NCBI RefSeq assembly: GCF_000741205.1
Contig: NZ_JGYW01000001.1
Coordinates: 167,645 to 231,644 of the forward strand
DNA: 64,000 nucleotides
Source: Bifidobacterium gallicum DSM 20093 = LMG 11596
Lineage (GTDB): Bacteria; Actinomycetota; Actinomycetes; Actinomycetales; Bifidobacteriaceae
Direction of reading: 5' to 3'
Translations under genes and position numbers: made by a program
Notes under the pieces: generated by a model
The model's input: the letters and a program-made list of their open reading frames with translations, nothing else
Databases searched by the model: none
Told to the model about the DNA's origin: nothing
Part shown: in pieces, positions 4,762 through 63,240 of the stretch
How positions within the stretch are numbered: position 1 is the first letter of the stretch
How the letters are laid out: each line of letters opens with the position of its first letter

Positions 4762-5885
4762 CAGCTGTTGTACCGCATTGGCACGAGCAGGTAGCGATAG
4801 TTCATGGATTCATCGCTGTCGTGTTCCTGCTGGCCATCGAATTCGACGGGTTTGACGGCCGTGGTCATCTTCATGCGCACATACGGTTCGGTGATTGCGC
4901 TGATGCCTTCAATCAGGTAGTTGGGATTGAACGCCACGGTGATGTCTTCGCCGTCCAGGTCGACGTCGAGGATTTCGCGGGCTTGCGATTCGTCGGCGGC
5001 GCCGGCTGTCATCGTGACTTCCTCGCCCGTAAAGATCATGCGGATCGGTTCGTTGCGGCCGGCGACGAGCGAGACGCGCTTGATTGCGCTGATCAGCTGC
5101 TGGCGTTCCACCACGGCATGGATCGGGTATTCGTCGGCGTAAAGGCGGTCGACTGCAGGGAATTCACCGTCAATCAGCTGCACGGTGGAGATGCGGCCCG
5201 CGTTTTGGATGCCGAGCAGCGTCGGGTTGGACGGGTCGAATGAGATGACCACGTTCTGGTGTTCGTCGAGCGAACGCGAGATGTCACGCAAATGGGTGCC
5301 GCGGATCAGTGCGGTCGCGTTGATGTCGTTGTCGTCAGGCGTCCAATGGAACAGGGCGCGCGAGAGGCGGTAGCGGTCGGTGGAGCTCAGTGTGACACGT
5401 TCGCCGTCGCACTGCATGCGTACTGCGGTGAGCACCTGGCGTGTGCCGTCATGGGAGACGGCGACGACGGCCTGGGCCACGGCCTGGGCGAACGTTTCGG
5501 CGTCGACTTGGCCGATTTGTGGCGGCAGCTGTGGCAGGTCGGGGTATTCGCTTTCGGGCATGAGCTGCATCGTGAACGTGGATTTGCCGCTTGTGATGCG
5601 CAGCGTGGAACCTTCGGTTGCCAAATAGGTTTTTTCCGAAGGCAGCATTTTGGAAATGTCGGTCAGCAGTTTGCCGAGCACGACCACGGCGCCTGGTTCG
5701 TCCACGCCGGCTTCAATGCGGTCACGAGCCGAAATCTCATAGTTGAATGCCGACAGGAACAGTGCTCCGTCTTTGGCTTCGAGCTTGACGCCAGCCAGGA
5801 TCGGCGAATTGGGGCGCGAATCGATGACGCGCGTGGTCCAGGCTGCGGCGTCGGCAAGCGATGTGGAATTGACTTCGACTTTCAT
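4761..5885 (-). CDS. dnaN: DNA polymerase III beta subunit (sliding clamp)
   Basis: Ring-shaped clamp that tethers DNA polymerase to DNA. 374 residues from ATG 5885 (MKVEVNSTSLADAAAW); a longer frame to 5963 would add 26 unlikely residues. The three-fold clamp repeat is visible, with typical segments SPILAGVKLEA, the PDLPQLP stretch and the C-terminal family ending YRYLLVPMRYNS. It is the first gene left of oriC, transcribed leftward away from the origin, and is coupled to recF by a one-base overlap. Confidence 0.96.
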   Translation of the reverse strand: MKVEVNSTSLADAAAWTTRVIDSRPNSPILAGVKLEAKDGALFLSAFNYEISARDRIEAGVDEPGAVVVLGKLLTDISKMLPSEKTYLATEGSTLRITSGKSTFTMQLMPESEYPDLPQLPPQIGQVDAETFAQAVAQAVVAVSHDGTRQVLTAVRMQCDGERVTLSSTDRYRLSRALFHWTPDDNDINATALIRGTHLRDISRSLDEHQNVVISFDPSNPTLLGIQNAGRISTVQLIDGEFPAVDRLYADEYPIHAVVERQQLISAIKRVSLVAGRNEPIRMIFTGEEVTMTAGAADESQAREILDVDLDGEDITVAFNPNYLIEGISAITEPYVRMKMTTAVKPVEFDGQQEHDSDESMNYRYLLVPMRYNS

Positions 5886-34775: not shown

Positions 34776-35175
34776 ACGCACCTCCCCTGACCAGCCCGGT
34801 CAGGAAAACCGCACTTTCGCGCCACAAACTGCATCTCTCCTGACCGGTCTGGTCAGGAAAAACGCAGTTACGCCTCCGGAAGTGCATCTCTCCGTACCGG
34901 CCTGGTCAGGAAAACCCCGCCTTCCTCCCAAAAGTGCATCTCTCCCAACCAGGCTGGTCAGGAAAACCGCACTTTCGCGCCGCAAAATGTATCTCTCCTT
35001 ACCAGCATGGTCAGGAAAATTGCACTTTCCCGCCCCAAACTGCATCTCTCCTGACCGGCCTGGTCAGGAAAACTGCAGTTTCATCTCTGGAAGCGCATCT
35101 TTCCTGACCAAGCTGGTCAGGGTAACTACATTTGCGCCTCTAGAAGCGCATCTTTCCGTACCGGGCTGGTCATCT
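34776..35175. repeat. Array A: eight tandem dyad elements with a 53-bp period
   Basis: Eight units share the core [left half]-N5-GGTCA. The right half GGTCAGG starts at 34798, 34851, 34904, 34956, 35009, 35062, 35115 and 35168 (the last reads GGTCATC). Steps are 53, 53, 52, 53, 53, 53 and 53. Left halves are TGACC (units 1, 2, 6, 7), GTACC (3, 8), CAACC (4) and TTACC (5). Around the core the units share TGCATCTCTCC upstream and AAAA downstream. It lies between the kinase start and the channel stop. It is neither coding (period not a multiple of three) nor CRISPR. Confidence 0.85.
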
Positions 35176-39328: not shown

Positions 39329-39471
39329 GAAGGGAGCTCACTGGGGAGTTCTCCATGGGTCACGTCGAACAGTGGAGCCGCGTCGAAGGAGACGGCTGCA
39401 TGCGCGACAAATAAACAAAACCCCTTCACTACGGATCGTTCGGCACGTACCTGCCGATGAAAGGAACCATA

Positions 39472-40605
39472 ATGGCAGAAGTCATTTTCGATCATGTGAC
39501 TCGTATCTACCCGGGCAACGATAAGCCCTCGGTCGATGATCTCAATCTTGATATCAAAGATGGTGAATTCCTCGTTCTCGTTGGTCCTTCTGGCTGCGGT
39601 AAGTCGACGACGCTGCGCATGCTTGCAGGCCTCGAAGAAGTGAACAAGGGCCGTATTCTGATCGGTGGCAAGGATGTCACGACGATGCAGCCCAAGGACC
39701 GTGATATCGCAATGGTCTTCCAGAACTACGCACTGTATCCGCACATGACGGTGGCCGACAACATGGGCTTCGCCCTGAAGATCGCCGGCACGCCGAAGGA
39801 CGAGATTCGCAAGCGCGTGGAGAAGGCCGCTGAAATCCTCGACTTGACCGAGTTCCTTGATCGTAAGCCGAAGGCCCTTTCGGGTGGTCAGCGCCAGCGT
39901 GTGGCCATGGGCCGCGCCATCGTGCGTGAGCCGAAGGTCTTCCTGATGGATGAGCCGCTTTCGAACCTCGATGCCAAGCTCCGTGTGCAGACGCGTACGC
40001 AGATCGCCGCCCTGCAGCGCCAGCTCGGCGTCACCACGCTGTACGTGACGCACGATCAGACCGAGGCTCTGACGATGGGCGACCGCATCGCCGTCATCAA
40101 GCTCGGCATCCTGCAGCAGGTCGGCGCTCCGACCGAGCTGTATGATCGCCCGGCCAACGTGTTCGTGGCAGGCTTCATTGGCTCCCCGTCAATGAACATC
40201 AACGTGCACCCGGTCATCAACGGCGAAGCCAAGGTGGGCGAGGATACGCTCGCACTGCCGAAGGAGGCCGTCGCCAAGCTCACGCCGGAAGACAACAACC
40301 AGATCATCGTCGGCTTCCGTCCGGAAGACGCCTCGCTGGCTGCTCCCGACGACACGAACGCCTTCTCGCTGAAGGTCGTCAACGTTGAGGATCTGGGCTC
40401 CGATGGCTACATCTACGGCAACATCATCCAGAGCGATGCTGATAAGACCATGGACACCGGCTCGCTGATGTCCGATCAGAACAAGCTCACGACGATCCGC
40501 GTGAACCCGCGCGTGCTGCCGAAGATCGGCGATATCGTCAAGATCAAGATCAACCCGGCCAAGATGCACCTGTTCGCACCGTCGACCGAGCTGCGTCTGA
40601 ACTAA
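39472..40605 (+). CDS. msmK: Sugar ABC transporter ATP-binding protein (MsmK/UgpC type)
   Basis: 377 residues from ATG 39472 (AAAGGAA upstream). Walker A GPSGCGKST at 38-46, Q-loop VFQNYALYPHMTV, signature LSGGQRQR, Walker B VFLMDEPLSNLD and H-loop YVTHDQTEA are all present, followed by a regulatory OB-fold domain with GFRPEDASL. This class is the shared ATPase that powers several carbohydrate transporters whose permeases lie elsewhere in the genome. It stands alone here with its own promoter and terminator, which fits that role. Confidence 0.93.
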   Translation: MAEVIFDHVTRIYPGNDKPSVDDLNLDIKDGEFLVLVGPSGCGKSTTLRMLAGLEEVNKGRILIGGKDVTTMQPKDRDIAMVFQNYALYPHMTVADNMGFALKIAGTPKDEIRKRVEKAAEILDLTEFLDRKPKALSGGQRQRVAMGRAIVREPKVFLMDEPLSNLDAKLRVQTRTQIAALQRQLGVTTLYVTHDQTEALTMGDRIAVIKLGILQQVGAPTELYDRPANVFVAGFIGSPSMNINVHPVINGEAKVGEDTLALPKEAVAKLTPEDNNQIIVGFRPEDASLAAPDDTNAFSLKVVNVEDLGSDGYIYGNIIQSDADKTMDTGSLMSDQNKLTTIRVNPRVLPKIGDIVKIKINPAKMHLFAPSTELRLN

Positions 40606-48650: not shown

Positions 48651-49979
48651 ATGACGAATTCCGGAACTTCCCGTCCGACTGACGGACAACAACATTTATT
48701 GACTCCTCCCGATACTCCATCGCAGAGCCATGCGCATATGTCGGGCGCGTCACGTGAGGATAGGTCAAGCGACATCATCGACCATACGCTGCTGTTCCCG
48801 CCCACCGGCAACGGCGACTCGACGATGCCTACGCAAACCGTGCCCTCGCAGGTGGACGCCTCATATCTGGAGTTTCCCGAAACAACGGGACCTGAGCTGC
48901 CCGCCATTCAGCAAGCGCGAGTGGCCTCGTCCACGCCAATCACGTCCGATAATGCTGAGCTGAACGATGCCGATGCGGACGATGCTGAAGATTCGGATAT
49001 TTTTGAAACGGCCAACAAGCCTCGTCAACATCGCCGCCACGGTGACGAACCGGCCAAACGCGGCAACGGCAAGCGTATCGTCGTGGCCGTGGTTGCCGTT
49101 GTGGCTGCTGCGGGTCTTGTGGCCGGCGGCCTGTGGTGGTGGAATTCAAGCCGCGACAACGCGGCGAAAACGGCTGTGCTGAACGAATGCCTTGATGCGC
49201 AACACAACTACGACAGCGTTGCCGCGAGCCTGAAGAAAGGTGTGGACGGCACTACCACACTGGCCAAGCTCACTGCCAAGGATGTGACCGACGCGGCTAC
49301 GATCGAGAACTTCACGAAGGCCTTGAACGATGCACAACAAGCGCGCGATGCCAAGACCCCGGCACAATGCACGGCTGCAATGCCGTCGCAGGAGCTCGAT
49401 GAGACGCGCATTGCCTGGAACACGGCGACGCAGAACATAACGACGGCAAACGAGCAGTTGACCAAGACTTCACAAGCGTTGAGCCAATCCCAGGCCGCCA
49501 AAACGCTCGAAAACCTACGCAACGATTTGAACAACGCCGTCACCACGGCCCAAGAAGCCTACGATGCTTCGGCCGGACAGGTAGCCGATGAAGCGACGCG
49601 TGAATCCTTGCTCAAGGCGATCGACGATGCCAAGAAGCTTGCCGGTTCTGAGGAACTGACGGCTGATCAGGTCAAACAAGCCAAAGATGCGCTGACCAAG
49701 GCCAATGATGCTGTGCAAACCTCAATCACCGACCTCGCCAACGCGAACGCCGCCGCAGCCGCCGCTGCCGCGCAACAGCAGGCATTGGCCCAGCAACAAG
49801 CATTGGCCCAACAGCAGGCGTTGCAGAATCAGCAAGCGCTGCAGAACCAGCAAGCGCTGCAGAACCAGCAGGCTCAGCTGCCGCAGCAACCAGTCCAACA
49901 GGTCGCTCCCGGTGGTGACGCAGGCAACACGGGCGACGCGGGCACCGTCACCGACCCCAACGCCGGCGTAATCCAATAA
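48651..49979 (+). CDS. Single-pass membrane protein with extracellular coiled coil and Gln-rich repeats
   Basis: 442 residues, AAGGGG upstream. Residues 1-135 are hydrophilic and disordered, with acidic DADADDAEDSD. One membrane helix follows (about 140-162, IVVAVVAVVAAAGLVAGGLWW). Residues about 165-365 are an Ala-rich helical coiled coil with FIVAR-like ADEATRESLLKAIDDAKKL; there are two cysteines in the proximal part. The C-terminus has tandem five-residue repeats QQALA/QNQQAL, encoded by repeated DNA that could slip. No function is recognised; a cell-envelope spacer or adhesion role is possible. It is 63 bases after dcd. Confidence 0.75.
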   Translation: MTNSGTSRPTDGQQHLLTPPDTPSQSHAHMSGASREDRSSDIIDHTLLFPPTGNGDSTMPTQTVPSQVDASYLEFPETTGPELPAIQQARVASSTPITSDNAELNDADADDAEDSDIFETANKPRQHRRHGDEPAKRGNGKRIVVAVVAVVAAAGLVAGGLWWWNSSRDNAAKTAVLNECLDAQHNYDSVAASLKKGVDGTTTLAKLTAKDVTDAATIENFTKALNDAQQARDAKTPAQCTAAMPSQELDETRIAWNTATQNITTANEQLTKTSQALSQSQAAKTLENLRNDLNNAVTTAQEAYDASAGQVADEATRESLLKAIDDAKKLAGSEELTADQVKQAKDALTKANDAVQTSITDLANANAAAAAAAAQQQALAQQQALAQQQALQNQQALQNQQALQNQQAQLPQQPVQQVAPGGDAGNTGDAGTVTDPNAGVIQ

Positions 49980-50110: not shown

Positions 50111-50372
50111 CTCGAAATCCGTATCGTGTTTGTACCACGGTGGTACGAATGCGGTACGGATGGGTTGGATTTGTATCGTGTTTGTACCACGGTGGTACGT
50201 TGGCGCTACGGATTTTGGCTCGTTTGTATCGTGGTTGTACCACGGTGGTACATTGACGCTACTTTTTGCTCGAAATCCGTATCGTGGTTGTACCACCGTG
50301 GTACAGAAGCGGTACGTTTTGCCCCTATCTGTGTTGCGTTTGTACCACGGTGGTACAGAAACGATACAGGTG
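50111..50372. repeat. Array B: five perfect dyad elements with a 52-53 bp period
   Basis: The 15-bp dyad GTACCAC[G/C]GTGGTAC begins at 50132, 50184, 50237, 50290 and 50342, with steps of 52, 53, 53 and 52. Only the central base varies (C in unit 4). Flanks are also partly conserved: TATCGTG on the left and a CGGTACG-type element on the right that can pair with it, giving a longer imperfect hairpin. The array lies between the convergent membrane-protein gene and tadA. The core geometry, GTACC-N5-GGTAC, is the same as that of array A. The remainder of 49980-50451 has no gene. Confidence 0.9.
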
Positions 50373-50451: not shown

Positions 50452-50910
50452 TCACCCGCGCAGGCGGAAGAAGGCGGTGAGCAGTTGGGCGCATTCGGAT
50501 TCGCGGATGCCGCCGTAGACTTCGGGGTGCGCGCCAATATGGGGGTCACGCGGCAGGTCCCAGACCGACCCGCAGGCACCGAGTTTGGCATCCCACGCAC
50601 CGAACACGATGCGCCCCACATGCGTTTGCAGGCAAGCGCCCGCGCACATCGGGCACGGTTCGAGCGTGACCACGAGCGTGCAATCTTCGAGGTTCCAGCT
50701 TCCGAGCGTCGCCGCGGCCTCACGCATCGCTTCAATCTCGGCGTGCGCCAACGGATCGAGATTGCGTTCGCGCATGTTGTGTCCGCGCCCGATCACACGG
50801 CCGCCCGCGTCGAGCACGCACGCCCCAATCGGCACGTCGCCGTGCTGTTTGGCTTGAAGCGCTTGCGCAATCGCCGATTCCATCGCCTGCTCGGCCAGCT
50901 GCTTGTTCAT
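50452..50910 (-). CDS. tadA: tRNA-specific adenosine deaminase
   Basis: Deaminates adenosine 34 to inosine in tRNA-Arg. 152 residues from ATG 50910, a weak ribosome site. Zinc and catalytic residues are in HAE (His56, Glu58) and PCPMC (Cys86, Cys89), within the CMP/dCMP deaminase fold. RNHNMRERNLD-type substrate-loop sequence (here GHNMRERNLDPLAHAE) is typical of TadA rather than cytidine deaminase. It ends beside array B. Confidence 0.93.
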   Translation of the reverse strand: MNKQLAEQAMESAIAQALQAKQHGDVPIGACVLDAGGRVIGRGHNMRERNLDPLAHAEIEAMREAAATLGSWNLEDCTLVVTLEPCPMCAGACLQTHVGRIVFGAWDAKLGACGSVWDLPRDPHIGAHPEVYGGIRESECAQLLTAFFRLRG

Positions 50911-51108
50911 GACGTCCAGTCTACGTCTGACCTCGCTCTGCGTTCTGCTGTCCCATCCGCTCATGCACCCCCATCAATCTCCCGATTGCCGCTCACCGCG
51001 CGCTGTCCATCACATCGTCCTGTTCCCGTCCCACACCCCCTACGGGCAACACGCGCCCTGTACACTGAACAACAGACAGTATGCACCGACAACGCCGAGG
51101 GAGGTTCC

Positions 51109-61774: not shown

Positions 61775-61954
61775 GTTCCCGTCATACCACGATTTGCTGA
61801 GCCGGCGCGTAACTGTCCCCAATTGCGCAAATTTCCCATTCCCAATCCCGCACAGCCGTTGGCTGCCCGTCTTGCTCTATCCGTGCTCTACCCGTGCTGA
61901 GAACCGATTGGTTGATGGCTTGTATGGCCTTTGCCTGCCCGTCTCGTTTCCTTC

Positions 61955-62995
61955 CTGTACCATTCCCTTCCCATTGTTCTTACTCGCTTTACCCTCTCCT
62001 TACTCTCTCCCTCTTTTTCTCTCTCATCTTCCTGCGTTCTTCTGTACTGCGGGCTTTTCCCTTCCATCCTTCTTCACCTTTCCGGTCCTTCTTTAGTCTC
62101 TTCACGCTCTTCCGTTCTTCAGTCTCTTCACGCCCTTCCGTTCTTCTTCCCGTACTAGCCTCTCCTCTTCTTTTTCTTTCGTCCCTTTTCCTGCTTCCTT
62201 CCTCGCGTTCCTACTTTTGCCAGTTGTTTCCTCTCGTCGCTCCCCATTCCTTTGTCTCTTCTTCTTACGCTTCTTCCATCCATCCCTTTTCCTTGCTTGC
62301 CCCTTGCTTTTCCGTCCGGCATGGCAGCATGCGTTTTCGCATCCCCAATCTGTTCGTTCCTTTCCCATCCCATCACTTCCTGTCTTTCTGCTTCTTTCCC
62401 TTCTTTCGACTTTCCCATCTTTGTCTCGCCTCGTACCTCTCTACTTGCTTTTCCTCTTCTTCTGCCGTCTTTTCCTGCGGTCTTCTCTTCCTCTCTTCCT
62501 TCCTTCCTTTTGATTCCTTTCCGCTCTCGGTTCTTTCTTTCTTTCTCCCACTCTGCCTTCTCTTCGCTTTCCTCTGCCTGTTCATTCATCTCCCATCCCA
62601 TCGCTTCCTGTCTTTCTGCTTCTTTCCCTTCTTTCCCTTCTTTCCTTTTCGTTCCCTTCTTTCCCTTCTCTCCCTTCTCTCCCTTCTCTCCCTTCTCTCC
62701 TTCCTCTCCCTTTCGTTCCTCTTCTTGCCTCTTCTCTCTCGACCCTCTCTTGCCCACTGTGTCCTCTCTCCCCCCGCCTGTCTTTCCTTGCCGCTGTTCT
62801 TGCGGTCTTCTTTTCCTTTCCTTCCCCTTTTTCCTTTCTCGTCTCTTTCCTTTCTCGTCTCTTTTCTTTCTCGTCTCTTTTCTTTCTCGTTTCCCTCTTT
62901 CCTTCCCGTCCTCCCGTCTTTCTGTTCCTCCTTTTCTTGTTCTTCCCTTCTCCTTTATCTTTTTCCCTGGTTCCTTGTTTGTTTCTTGTTTTGCT
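61955..62995. repeat. About 1 kb pyrimidine-biased tract upstream of the rRNA operon
   Basis: For about 1 kb the plus strand is almost only C and T, with scattered purines. It contains short tandem repeats: CCCTTCTCT-type, period 9, at 62654-62692; TTTCTCG, period 16, at 62835, 62851, 62867 and 62883; and a 57-base near-duplicate (62350-62406 and 62578-62634). Long open frames on both strands are a consequence of this composition and not genes. There is no gene from 61775 to about 63430. Confidence 0.9.
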
Positions 62996-63000
62996 TGTGT

Positions 63001-63240
63001 GACACGCCGTTGTGGGGTGGTTTTGGGGTTGGTTGGGGTGGTTTGGGTGTTGTTGTGGGGTTGTTTTGGTTGGTTGCGACACGCCGTGGAGGGCTTGTGT
63101 TGGTTGGGTTTTTGTGTGGTGGGTTGCGGTTTTGGTGTGGGTGGTGTAGGTTTTTCTTTTGCTGCCGCTCACGGCTTGCCGGGGTTTTCCTGGTGTGGTT
63201 GGTGGGTGTGTGGTGGTGGTTTGAGAACTCAATAGTGTGT
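63001..63240 (+). other. G/T-rich stretch with quadruplex-type G runs
   Basis: Composition switches at 63000 from pyrimidines to G plus T. G runs lie at 63014-63017, 63025-63028, 63035-63038, 63045-63047 and 63057-63060, sufficient for a G-quadruplex on the plus strand. GACACGCCGT occurs twice (63001 and about 63081). It leads directly into the rRNA leader. Confidence 0.75.

What the first reader, a model, noticed from the sequence alone, without database searches (positions are those of the whole stretch)
50111..50372. Array B: five perfect 15-bp dyads spaced by exactly five helical turns
GTACCAC[G/C]GTGGTAC occurs five times with start-to-start steps of 52, 53, 53 and 52 bases (mean 52.5, that is 5 x 10.5). 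All copies therefore face the same side of the helix. The palindrome is invariant except for the central base, while the flanks drift, but the drift keeps a pairing outer arm in units 1 and 4 (with a G-T pair in unit 1). The period is not a multiple of three, so it is not a protein repeat. It lies between two convergent genes, so it is unlikely to be a promoter operator. An array of phased protein-binding sites or a hairpin-rich RNA both fit. I do not know a described element of this kind.
Basis: partly seen in the sequence, partly recalled or inferred. Interest (0 to 1): 0.85.

Follow-up and report, generated by a model that had tools for sequence, protein, structure and literature searches.

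The report
Genome-wide lattice of helically phased dyads
A Bifidobacterium chromosome carries dozens of intergenic arrays of short DNA palindromes set about five (sometimes six) turns of the double helix apart, mostly in the half around the replication origin, which looks like a coded track for an unidentified DNA-binding protein, though a self-spreading repeat is not ruled out.

Summary
The five dyads (cores 50132-50356, steps 52, 53, 53, 52) belong to a genome-wide family: 47 exact GTACCACNGTGGTAC cores (family B), and a sister family A, TGACCRGNCYGGTCA, with 154 sites within one mismatch ('Array A' here, 34788-35172). In the 42% of the genome I held, 40 arrays of 3-27 units contain 274 units. 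With no spacing assumed, 206 of 207 neighbouring steps are 51-54 or 62-63 bp, five or six helical turns, although linkers average only 49-57% identity. A and B units share one lattice; nine B arrays are dyad-symmetric five-site elements. Arrays lie outside predicted genes, have varied neighbours, and crowd the origin side (33 of 41 placed loci on 44% of placed DNA). The two halves of a B array pair less well with each other than with halves of other arrays, so hairpin RNA is disfavoured. Best reading: a DNA lattice for a cooperative, sequence-specific protein, perhaps a chromosome organiser. The protein is not identified, and a selfish REP-like repeat remains a serious rival. Of 112 genus genomes searched, only one other, apparently B. 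pullorum, matched the B pair pattern; none other matched A.

The parts
50121..50367 (.). B array: five 37-bp units (core dyad plus outer half-sites); global dyad at the centre of unit 3 (about 50244)
50121..50157 (.). B unit 1; core 50132-50146
50173..50209 (.). B unit 2; core 50184-50198
50226..50262 (.). B unit 3 (array centre); core 50237-50251
50279..50315 (.). B unit 4; core 50290-50304, central C
50331..50367 (.). B unit 5; core 50342-50356
34788..35172 (.). A array on the same kind of lattice: eight cores of TGACCRGNCTGGTCA type, several of them imperfect, steps 53, 53, 52, 53, 53, 53, 53
48651..49979 (+). left neighbour of the B array: hypothetical protein with one likely membrane span (read by eye), no Pfam match; points at the array
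50452..50964 (-). right neighbour of the B array: cytidine/deoxycytidylate deaminase family (tadA-like, by recall); points at the array

Best explanation
The arrays are a sequence-coded DNA lattice for a cooperative, sequence-specific DNA-binding protein. SHOWN: a 15-bp core dyad recurs every 51-54 bp, or 62-63 bp, so cores lie on about one helical face. Further conserved positions sit about one turn outward (offsets 13-18), and AT-rich positions recur at about 9-12 and 20-22 bp from the dyad. Two core families (TGACC and GTACC half-sites, with hybrids) share this lattice. Nine B arrays are symmetric about their central unit. Arrays are intergenic, dispersed, and concentrated on the origin side. 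INFERRED: a symmetric dimer (or pair of dimers) occupies each unit, neighbours touch across five turns, and the DNA between is bent. Inferred more weakly: the resulting stiff or looped fibres organise or mark the origin-side chromosome (insulation, compaction or coupling to division) rather than regulating particular genes. The family spreads between intergenic sites as arrays by an unknown route. Probability of a protein-bound DNA lattice about 0.75; the confidence below is for the lattice plus some host role.
For: Spacing without a spacing filter: 206 of 207 steps under 70 bp fall in 51-54 or 62-63, one at 56. De novo search on C3, C8 and the window: 73 of 75 similar-palindrome pairs fall at 51-54, 62-63 or two-step sums. 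By contrast the same GTACC pair pattern in other genomes gives steps spread from 11 to 73 bp (91 loci). 38-bp linkers average 0.49 (B-B) and 0.57 (A-A) pairwise identity; a neutral simulation with assumed indel rates puts 10-51% of linkers off phase (change of 2 bp or more, not a turn) and 1-5% at +/-9-11 bp, against 6 of 207 (five at 51, one at 56) and 11 of 207. B symmetry: linker 2 versus linker 3 across 9 arrays is 0.66 identical as reverse complement, 0.41 direct. A-B junctions at 52 bp on C3 and C4 and 53 bp on C1. Intergenic 20 of 20. Origin bias 33 of 41 loci, binomial 2e-6, with dnaA on contig C1 inside the window and contigs placed by synteny. Neighbours include purL-, nusG/rplK-, rplQ-, gltX-, dtd-, pdxT- and mutY-like genes, so no evident regulon.
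Against: No binding protein was found. The genome's only gene matching ParB_N is one on the origin contig, and three parS-like sites with 1-2 mismatches lie in the window. No binding data exist. Constant spacing could partly be inherited, because arrays are copied and steps are not independent. The 51- and 57-bp steps of B. pullorum do not fit exact phasing. The near/far boundary for the origin test, including a split of C4 at 200 kb, was drawn after seeing the counts, on a relative's gene order. Stretches taken from gaps on origin-side C4 (45 kb) and C9 (15 kb) held no units.
Confidence: 0.5

Rival explanations
1. A selfish REP/BIME-like repeat: the palindromes are recognised by an unidentified transposase or recombination process that copies arrays between intergenic sites. 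The phasing is a need of that enzyme's complex and has no host role.
For: Hundreds of units, intergenic and dispersed. In the 45 best alignments printed, similarity between arrays at different loci ends inside or within about 25 bp of an array edge, with one exception that includes flanking DNA (C3:60032 with C4). Very similar middle segments occur at different loci (L048 and L049). Found in one species plus a trace in B. pullorum. One array (L036) has a 9-nt word in both flanks.
Against: The REP-associated transposase family (PF01797) matches three genes, each beside an IS605 orfB (tnpB) frame by Pfam, so they look like ordinary IS605 elements; no array lies within 2.9 kb of the two on C3 and no exact core near the one on C5. 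Over 38 arrays, shared flank words are no longer than in shuffled flanks (36 of 300 shuffles reach the observed mean). No hairpin selection. Fixed phasing is not a feature I know of in REPs (recalled).
Confidence: 0.32
2. A functionless minisatellite: the constant period is inherited from one ancestral array and the arrays spread by recombination.
For: Adjacent units resemble each other and arrays are copied.
Against: Cores are far better conserved than linkers. Length changes cluster at 0, +/-1 and +9/+10 bp. B arrays carry a global dyad. In A-A linkers two type-2 arms almost never meet (3 against 93 mixed and 38 type-1 pairs among 134 typed of 163).
Confidence: 0.08
3. A hairpin-rich RNA or multi-stem 3' UTR.
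For: The window array folds to -152.9 kcal/mol, z -15.3, as one long hairpin. The unit hairpin pairs in 81.6% of cells against 21-49% when slid, and its covariation score exceeds most shuffles (9 of 500 reach it), carried by the outer pairs. On 81 B units offsets 13, 14 and 16-18 co-vary.
Against: Own halves pair less well than halves of different arrays: 20.8 against 24.5 Watson-Crick pairs of 38, and 4984 of 5000 permutations pair at least as well; with G-U 4860 of 5000. In family A several offsets anti-co-vary (z down to -5.3) though some conserved ones show positive z up to 4.4 (4.8 with G-U). Three of the five measures do not exceed shuffles. No Rfam match in the array at gathering scores.
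Confidence: 0.05
4. An operator array of one regulator acting on neighbouring genes.
For: 15-bp dyads are typical of dimeric regulators (recalled).
Against: 15 B loci have unrelated, largely housekeeping neighbours and 4 lie between convergent genes; arrays reach 27 units.
Confidence: 0.05

Closest known systems
REP / BIME / REPIN repeats with RAYT (TnpA-REP)
   Same: Many short extragenic palindromes, singly or in arrays, in every gene orientation, dispersed (passages of PMC3733652)
   Different: No RAYT-like gene apart from IS605 tnpA; no hairpin selection; five-turn lattice; GTAG foot on only 21 of 108 arms
Noc-binding sites and SlmA-binding sites (nucleoid occlusion)
   Same: Dispersed short palindromes; their depletion near the terminus is recalled (only the start of the abstract of PMC4331003 was seen)
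   Different: Arrays of phased sites instead of scattered single sites; no extra ParB/Noc-family gene
   Same: Same core halves, tandem, similar period
   Different: Three exact cores, period 51 with one 57, different arms, no lattice in a 100-kb sample
Iterons and parS/parC partition arrays (recalled)
   Same: Phased protein-binding repeats
   Different: These mark one or few replicon loci; here there are dozens of chromosomal loci
H-NS assembly on spatially organised sites (PMC5418058, start of abstract in a search listing only)
   Same: Idea that site spacing directs assembly of bacterial chromatin
   Different: Different motif and organism; here the phasing is written over hundreds of dyads

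Membership tests
REP/BIME (RAYT-associated) | A REP-associated tyrosine transposase in the genome, usually bordered by REPs | tested here: not met
   PF01797: three matches in G000, each beside an IS605 orfB frame, not bordered by the dyads. A diverged RAYT below the cut-off cannot be excluded.
REP/BIME (RAYT-associated) | Stem-loop conserved by compensatory change | tested here: not met
   mixed per-offset results, where only outer arm positions co-vary
REP/BIME (RAYT-associated) | High-copy, extragenic, dispersed palindromes | tested here: met
REP/BIME (RAYT-associated) | GTAG or CGTC tag at one end (PMC3733652, passages seen) | tested here: not met
   GTAG on 21 of 108 arm feet; CGTC somewhere in an arm of 14 of 54 units; no constant tag
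Noc/ParB site system | A second ParB-family protein to bind the sites | tested here: not met
   One ParB_N gene, matched in two pieces at C1:181961-182320
Noc/ParB site system | Sites depleted near the terminus | tested here: met
   Terminus-side contig C5 (435 kb): 1 locus, 9.2 expected; boundary chosen after seeing the data
CRISPR | Near-identical repeats separated by unrelated unique spacers | tested here: not met
   Linkers are mutually similar and carry conserved positions
IS/MITE | Target-site duplication at the edges | tested here: not met
   38 arrays, mean shared word 4.71 against 4.50 shuffled, 36 of 300 shuffles reach it; one array (L036) shares 9 nt
Described RNA family | Rfam match | tested here: not met
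   only SSU rRNA, tRNA and msiK in the window at gathering scores

The most novel reading that the evidence does not exclude
A bacterial 'satellite chromatin': one Bifidobacterium species has written a five-turn phased lattice into its origin-side intergenic DNA, on which an unknown protein builds regular nucleoprotein fibres that define a chromosomal domain. This would be a sequence-programmed chromatin fibre evolved within a single lineage.
Probability: 0.25. Interest if true: 0.88.

Novelty: new variant of a known kind. Interest (0 to 1): 0.66.

Why it matters
Helical phasing is usually inferred from a few operator pairs. Here one genome offers hundreds of sites whose spacing tolerates about 1-2 bp or one whole extra turn and little else, with natural hybrids of two half-site families. 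If a protein binds them, its cooperativity and its chromosomal role can be tested directly, and the case would show how quickly a bacterial lineage can acquire a chromosome-wide DNA code. If the arrays are selfish, it would be a palindromic repeat family that spreads without the transposase normally blamed.

Tried and rejected
REP-associated transposase: searched PF01797 in 19 genomes; only this genome matched, with three genes that sit beside IS605 orfB frames. An extra ParB/Noc protein: none by ParB_N (29 genomes). Hairpin RNA: tested by unit covariation, half-swapping and pair counting. Target-site duplications: none above shuffles. Plasmids and phages: no blastn match to the array. IMG/VR: pair patterns of B and A hit 46 and 35 stretches; their steps are spread over many values with 51-54 or 62-63 rare (1 and 4 steps). 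GTDB contigs: the B-pair pattern gave 91 stretches, all now seen by name; one is Bifidobacterium (B. pullorum DSM 20433). Records near the window's own genome may be left out by that tool. 13 of the 91 have a step of 51-54 or 62-63, none with more than three cores there. No such whole-collection scan was made for family A. De novo scans of 100 kb each of four relatives found no lattice. The empty site could not be read: nusG to rplK is 279 bp in G010 and 851 bp here by the same measure, but sequences are too far apart to show an edge, and in G074 nusG is not directly upstream.

Papers: search listings only for (one search listed nothing); passages by keyword in PMC12306157 and PMC3733652, neither of which mentions Bifidobacterium in the main text held. 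Searches for a described Bifidobacterium element showed none in what was listed; subscription papers and preprints are not held.

Caveats on counts: array chaining admits only lattice-like steps, so only searches count as spacing tests; one search looked mainly at stretches fetched because they held sites, plus C3, C8 and the window. C3 and C8 were themselves chosen because they had hits, and the stretches were set in gaps between known arrays, so the densities are not fair samples; the origin test rests. The A-site list was cut at 100 of 106 G/C-centred sites, so A sites on late C8 and C9-C12 are under-counted. C7, C12, C6 and C10 were not placed. The arm types were defined by me; 29 of 163 linkers could not be typed.

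Full report
WHAT IS IN THE WINDOW. The five dyads are present exactly as reported. Each is part of a 37-bp unit: core GTACCACNGTGGTAC, with an outer half-site on either side (consensus GTANCGNGTTT before and AAACGCGNTAC after, 54 of the 65 units). A second array in the window, 34788-35172, has eight TGACCRGNCTGGTCA-type cores, several imperfect, at 52-53 bp.

THE FAMILY IN THE GENOME. The window lies in a 2.00-Mb genome of 12 contigs (G000). It holds 47 exact B cores and none of the reversed control, and 154 sites within one mismatch of TGACCRGNCYGGTCA, control 3. Exact TGACC-N5-GGTCA cores number 106 with a G or C centre (control 3) plus 25 with an A or T centre (control 0); a few are lone sites that may be chance. 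In the stretches I held (848 kb), 40 arrays of at least 3 units contain 274 units, the longest 27 units over 1.7 kb (C3:19975-21698).

SPACING. Two tests did not assume a spacing. Scanning C3, C8 (nearly whole) and the window for pairs of similar palindromes 20-129 bp apart gave 75 pairs: 73 at 51-54, 62-63, or the sums 104-107 and 115-116; the other two (21 and 27 bp) are unrelated sequences. Distances between neighbouring core matches of at least 11 of 14 gave 207 steps below 70 bp: 51 (5), 52 (23), 53 (158), 54 (9), 56 (1), 62 (8), 63 (3). As a contrast, GTACC pairs of other genomes are spread from 11 to 73 bp (91 loci). Mean pairwise identity of 38-bp linkers is 0.49 for B-B and 0.57 for A-A. 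A simple neutral simulation at 0.50-0.60 identity and indel:substitution ratios of 0.02-0.1 predicts 10-51% off-phase linkers and 1-5% at a full turn; one search has 6 of 207 and 11 of 207. The excess at +9/+10 and the near-absence of 55-61 fit helical phase. The simulation's rates are assumptions, and copying of arrays makes steps non-independent.

ARCHITECTURE. Nine B arrays with five units in register have steps outer-53-53-outer, with the outer step 51-52 or 62-63 (one of the nine, L043, has a sixth unit; other B loci have fewer units). Linkers 2 and 3 are mirror images: across different arrays 0.66 identical as reverse complement but 0.41 direct. The central unit often carries TGCA feet in place of GTA (12 of 108 feet), and TGCA plus a T-run at the same offsets resembles the arm of family A. 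A and B units share a lattice: B to A at 52 bp on C3 (20205 to 20257) and C4 (187154 to 187206), and a B-like unit inside an A array on C1 at 53 bp; hybrid cores such as GTACCGGGCTGGTCA occur. In A-A linkers two arm types follow a rule: of 134 linkers with both arms typed (163 in all), 93 are mixed, 38 have two type-1 arms and 3 two type-2 arms; terminal arms are 31 type 1, 6 type 2, 10 unclear. AT-rich dinucleotides concentrate at about 9-12 and 20-22 bp from the dyad, with a smaller peak at 14-16.

NOT AN RNA HAIRPIN. The window array folds extremely well as RNA (z -15.3), as an array with a global dyad would. But in nine arrays the two inner linkers of the same array form 20.8 Watson-Crick pairs of 38, against 24.5 for linkers of different arrays; 4984 of 5000 permutations pair at least as well as nature. 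Inner-arm offsets 8-15 within 65 B units do not co-vary, 17-18 do. The 81-unit set, which mixes in B-like units of A arrays, co-varies at 13, 14 and 16-18. In A units several offsets anti-co-vary (z to -5.3), while some conserved ones have positive z up to 4.4, or 4.8 with G-U. The unit-hairpin count shows a covariation score reached by 9 of 500 shuffles, carried by the outer pairs; the counts of changed pairs and pair types do not exceed shuffles. I read the outer covariation as two arm types, not as stem selection; this is an inference. Symmetry without complementarity within copies is what symmetric protein sites predict.

PLACE. On C3, C8 and the window 20 of 20 arrays overlap no gene of a simple home-made gene finder. 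B loci: 4 convergent, 8 tandem, 3 divergent; at L048 a predicted frame lies between two B arrays. Neighbours include purL-, nusG/rplK-, rplQ-, pdxT-, dtd-, gltX- and mutY-like genes, an IS605 orfB and an MFS gene (gene names from Pfam families by recall). Of 16 gene-to-array approaches, 8 show a terminator-like hairpin before the array (7 strong, 1 weak), none at the window locus (one search finds one there at chance level). Contigs were placed by synteny with the single-contig relative G063, from partial samples of both, with a few stray matches; dnaA lies at C1:174850, in the window. Of 41 placed loci (at least two exact cores, or any B core), 33 lie on 857 kb assigned to the origin side and 8 on 1078 kb assigned to the terminus side, binomial 2e-6. 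C5 has 1 locus, 9.2 expected. Gap stretches on origin-side C4 (45 kb) held no units, and of two on C9 one held none and one held eight.

DISTRIBUTION. Pair patterns: B in 2 of 112 genus genomes, A in 1 of 112. No lattice in 100-kb samples of four relatives. No blastn match in plasmids or phages.

MECHANISM. A symmetric dimer reading NNACC half-sites, two major grooves on one face, with further contacts one turn out and a neighbour five turns away, would make a regular fibre. A global dyad and mixed A/B lattices suit one protein, or close paralogues. The regional bias and lack of an evident regulon point away from gene control and towards chromosome organisation, or towards a mobile repeat with a target or survival bias. 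The known systems were tested feature by feature (membership table); none fits fully. No binding protein was identified.

VERDICT. A real, strong, genome-wide pattern. As a class it stands next to extragenic palindromic repeats, but phasing, lack of hairpin selection, lack of a recognisable RAYT and origin bias set it apart.

Noticed in passing
window 61925-62313 and 62353-63003: Long polypyrimidine tracts upstream of the 16S rRNA gene; similar tracts at C3:19295-19938 (just before the largest array) and C8:52637-52825 (polypurine); none in 100-kb samples of four relatives.
   Followed up: partly
L160 and L165 (C3:31835, C3:138907) and L215 (C5:408573): IS605-like elements with tnpA and orfB (tnpB) by Pfam; the two on C3 are near-identical. 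PF01797 was absent from the 18 other genomes searched.
   Followed up: partly
L102, L144, L155, L156, L090, L109: Patulibacter contigs carry palindromic units with GTACC-N5-GGTAC cores, with TGTCGG-type arms where read, mostly at 70-73 or 60 bp; superficially like B units but at other periods.
   Followed up: partly
Bacteroidaceae, Prevotellaceae and Odoribacter loci (such as L071, L073, L101): Multi-copy GTACC palindromes at 23 and 46 bp (deer and reindeer Bacteroidaceae) and at 11, 41 and 52 bp (Odoribacter faecigallinarum), apparently independent repeat families.
   Followed up: no
L312, L327, L299: Viral contigs with tandem TGACC-N5-GGTCA dyads every 29 bp (L312, L327) or at 33 and 65-66 bp (L299).
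   Followed up: no
window 39414-39472: msiK RNA element (Rfam RF01747).
   Followed up: no
L041 about 5510-5850: Purine-rich short repeats between the B array and rplK.
   Followed up: no
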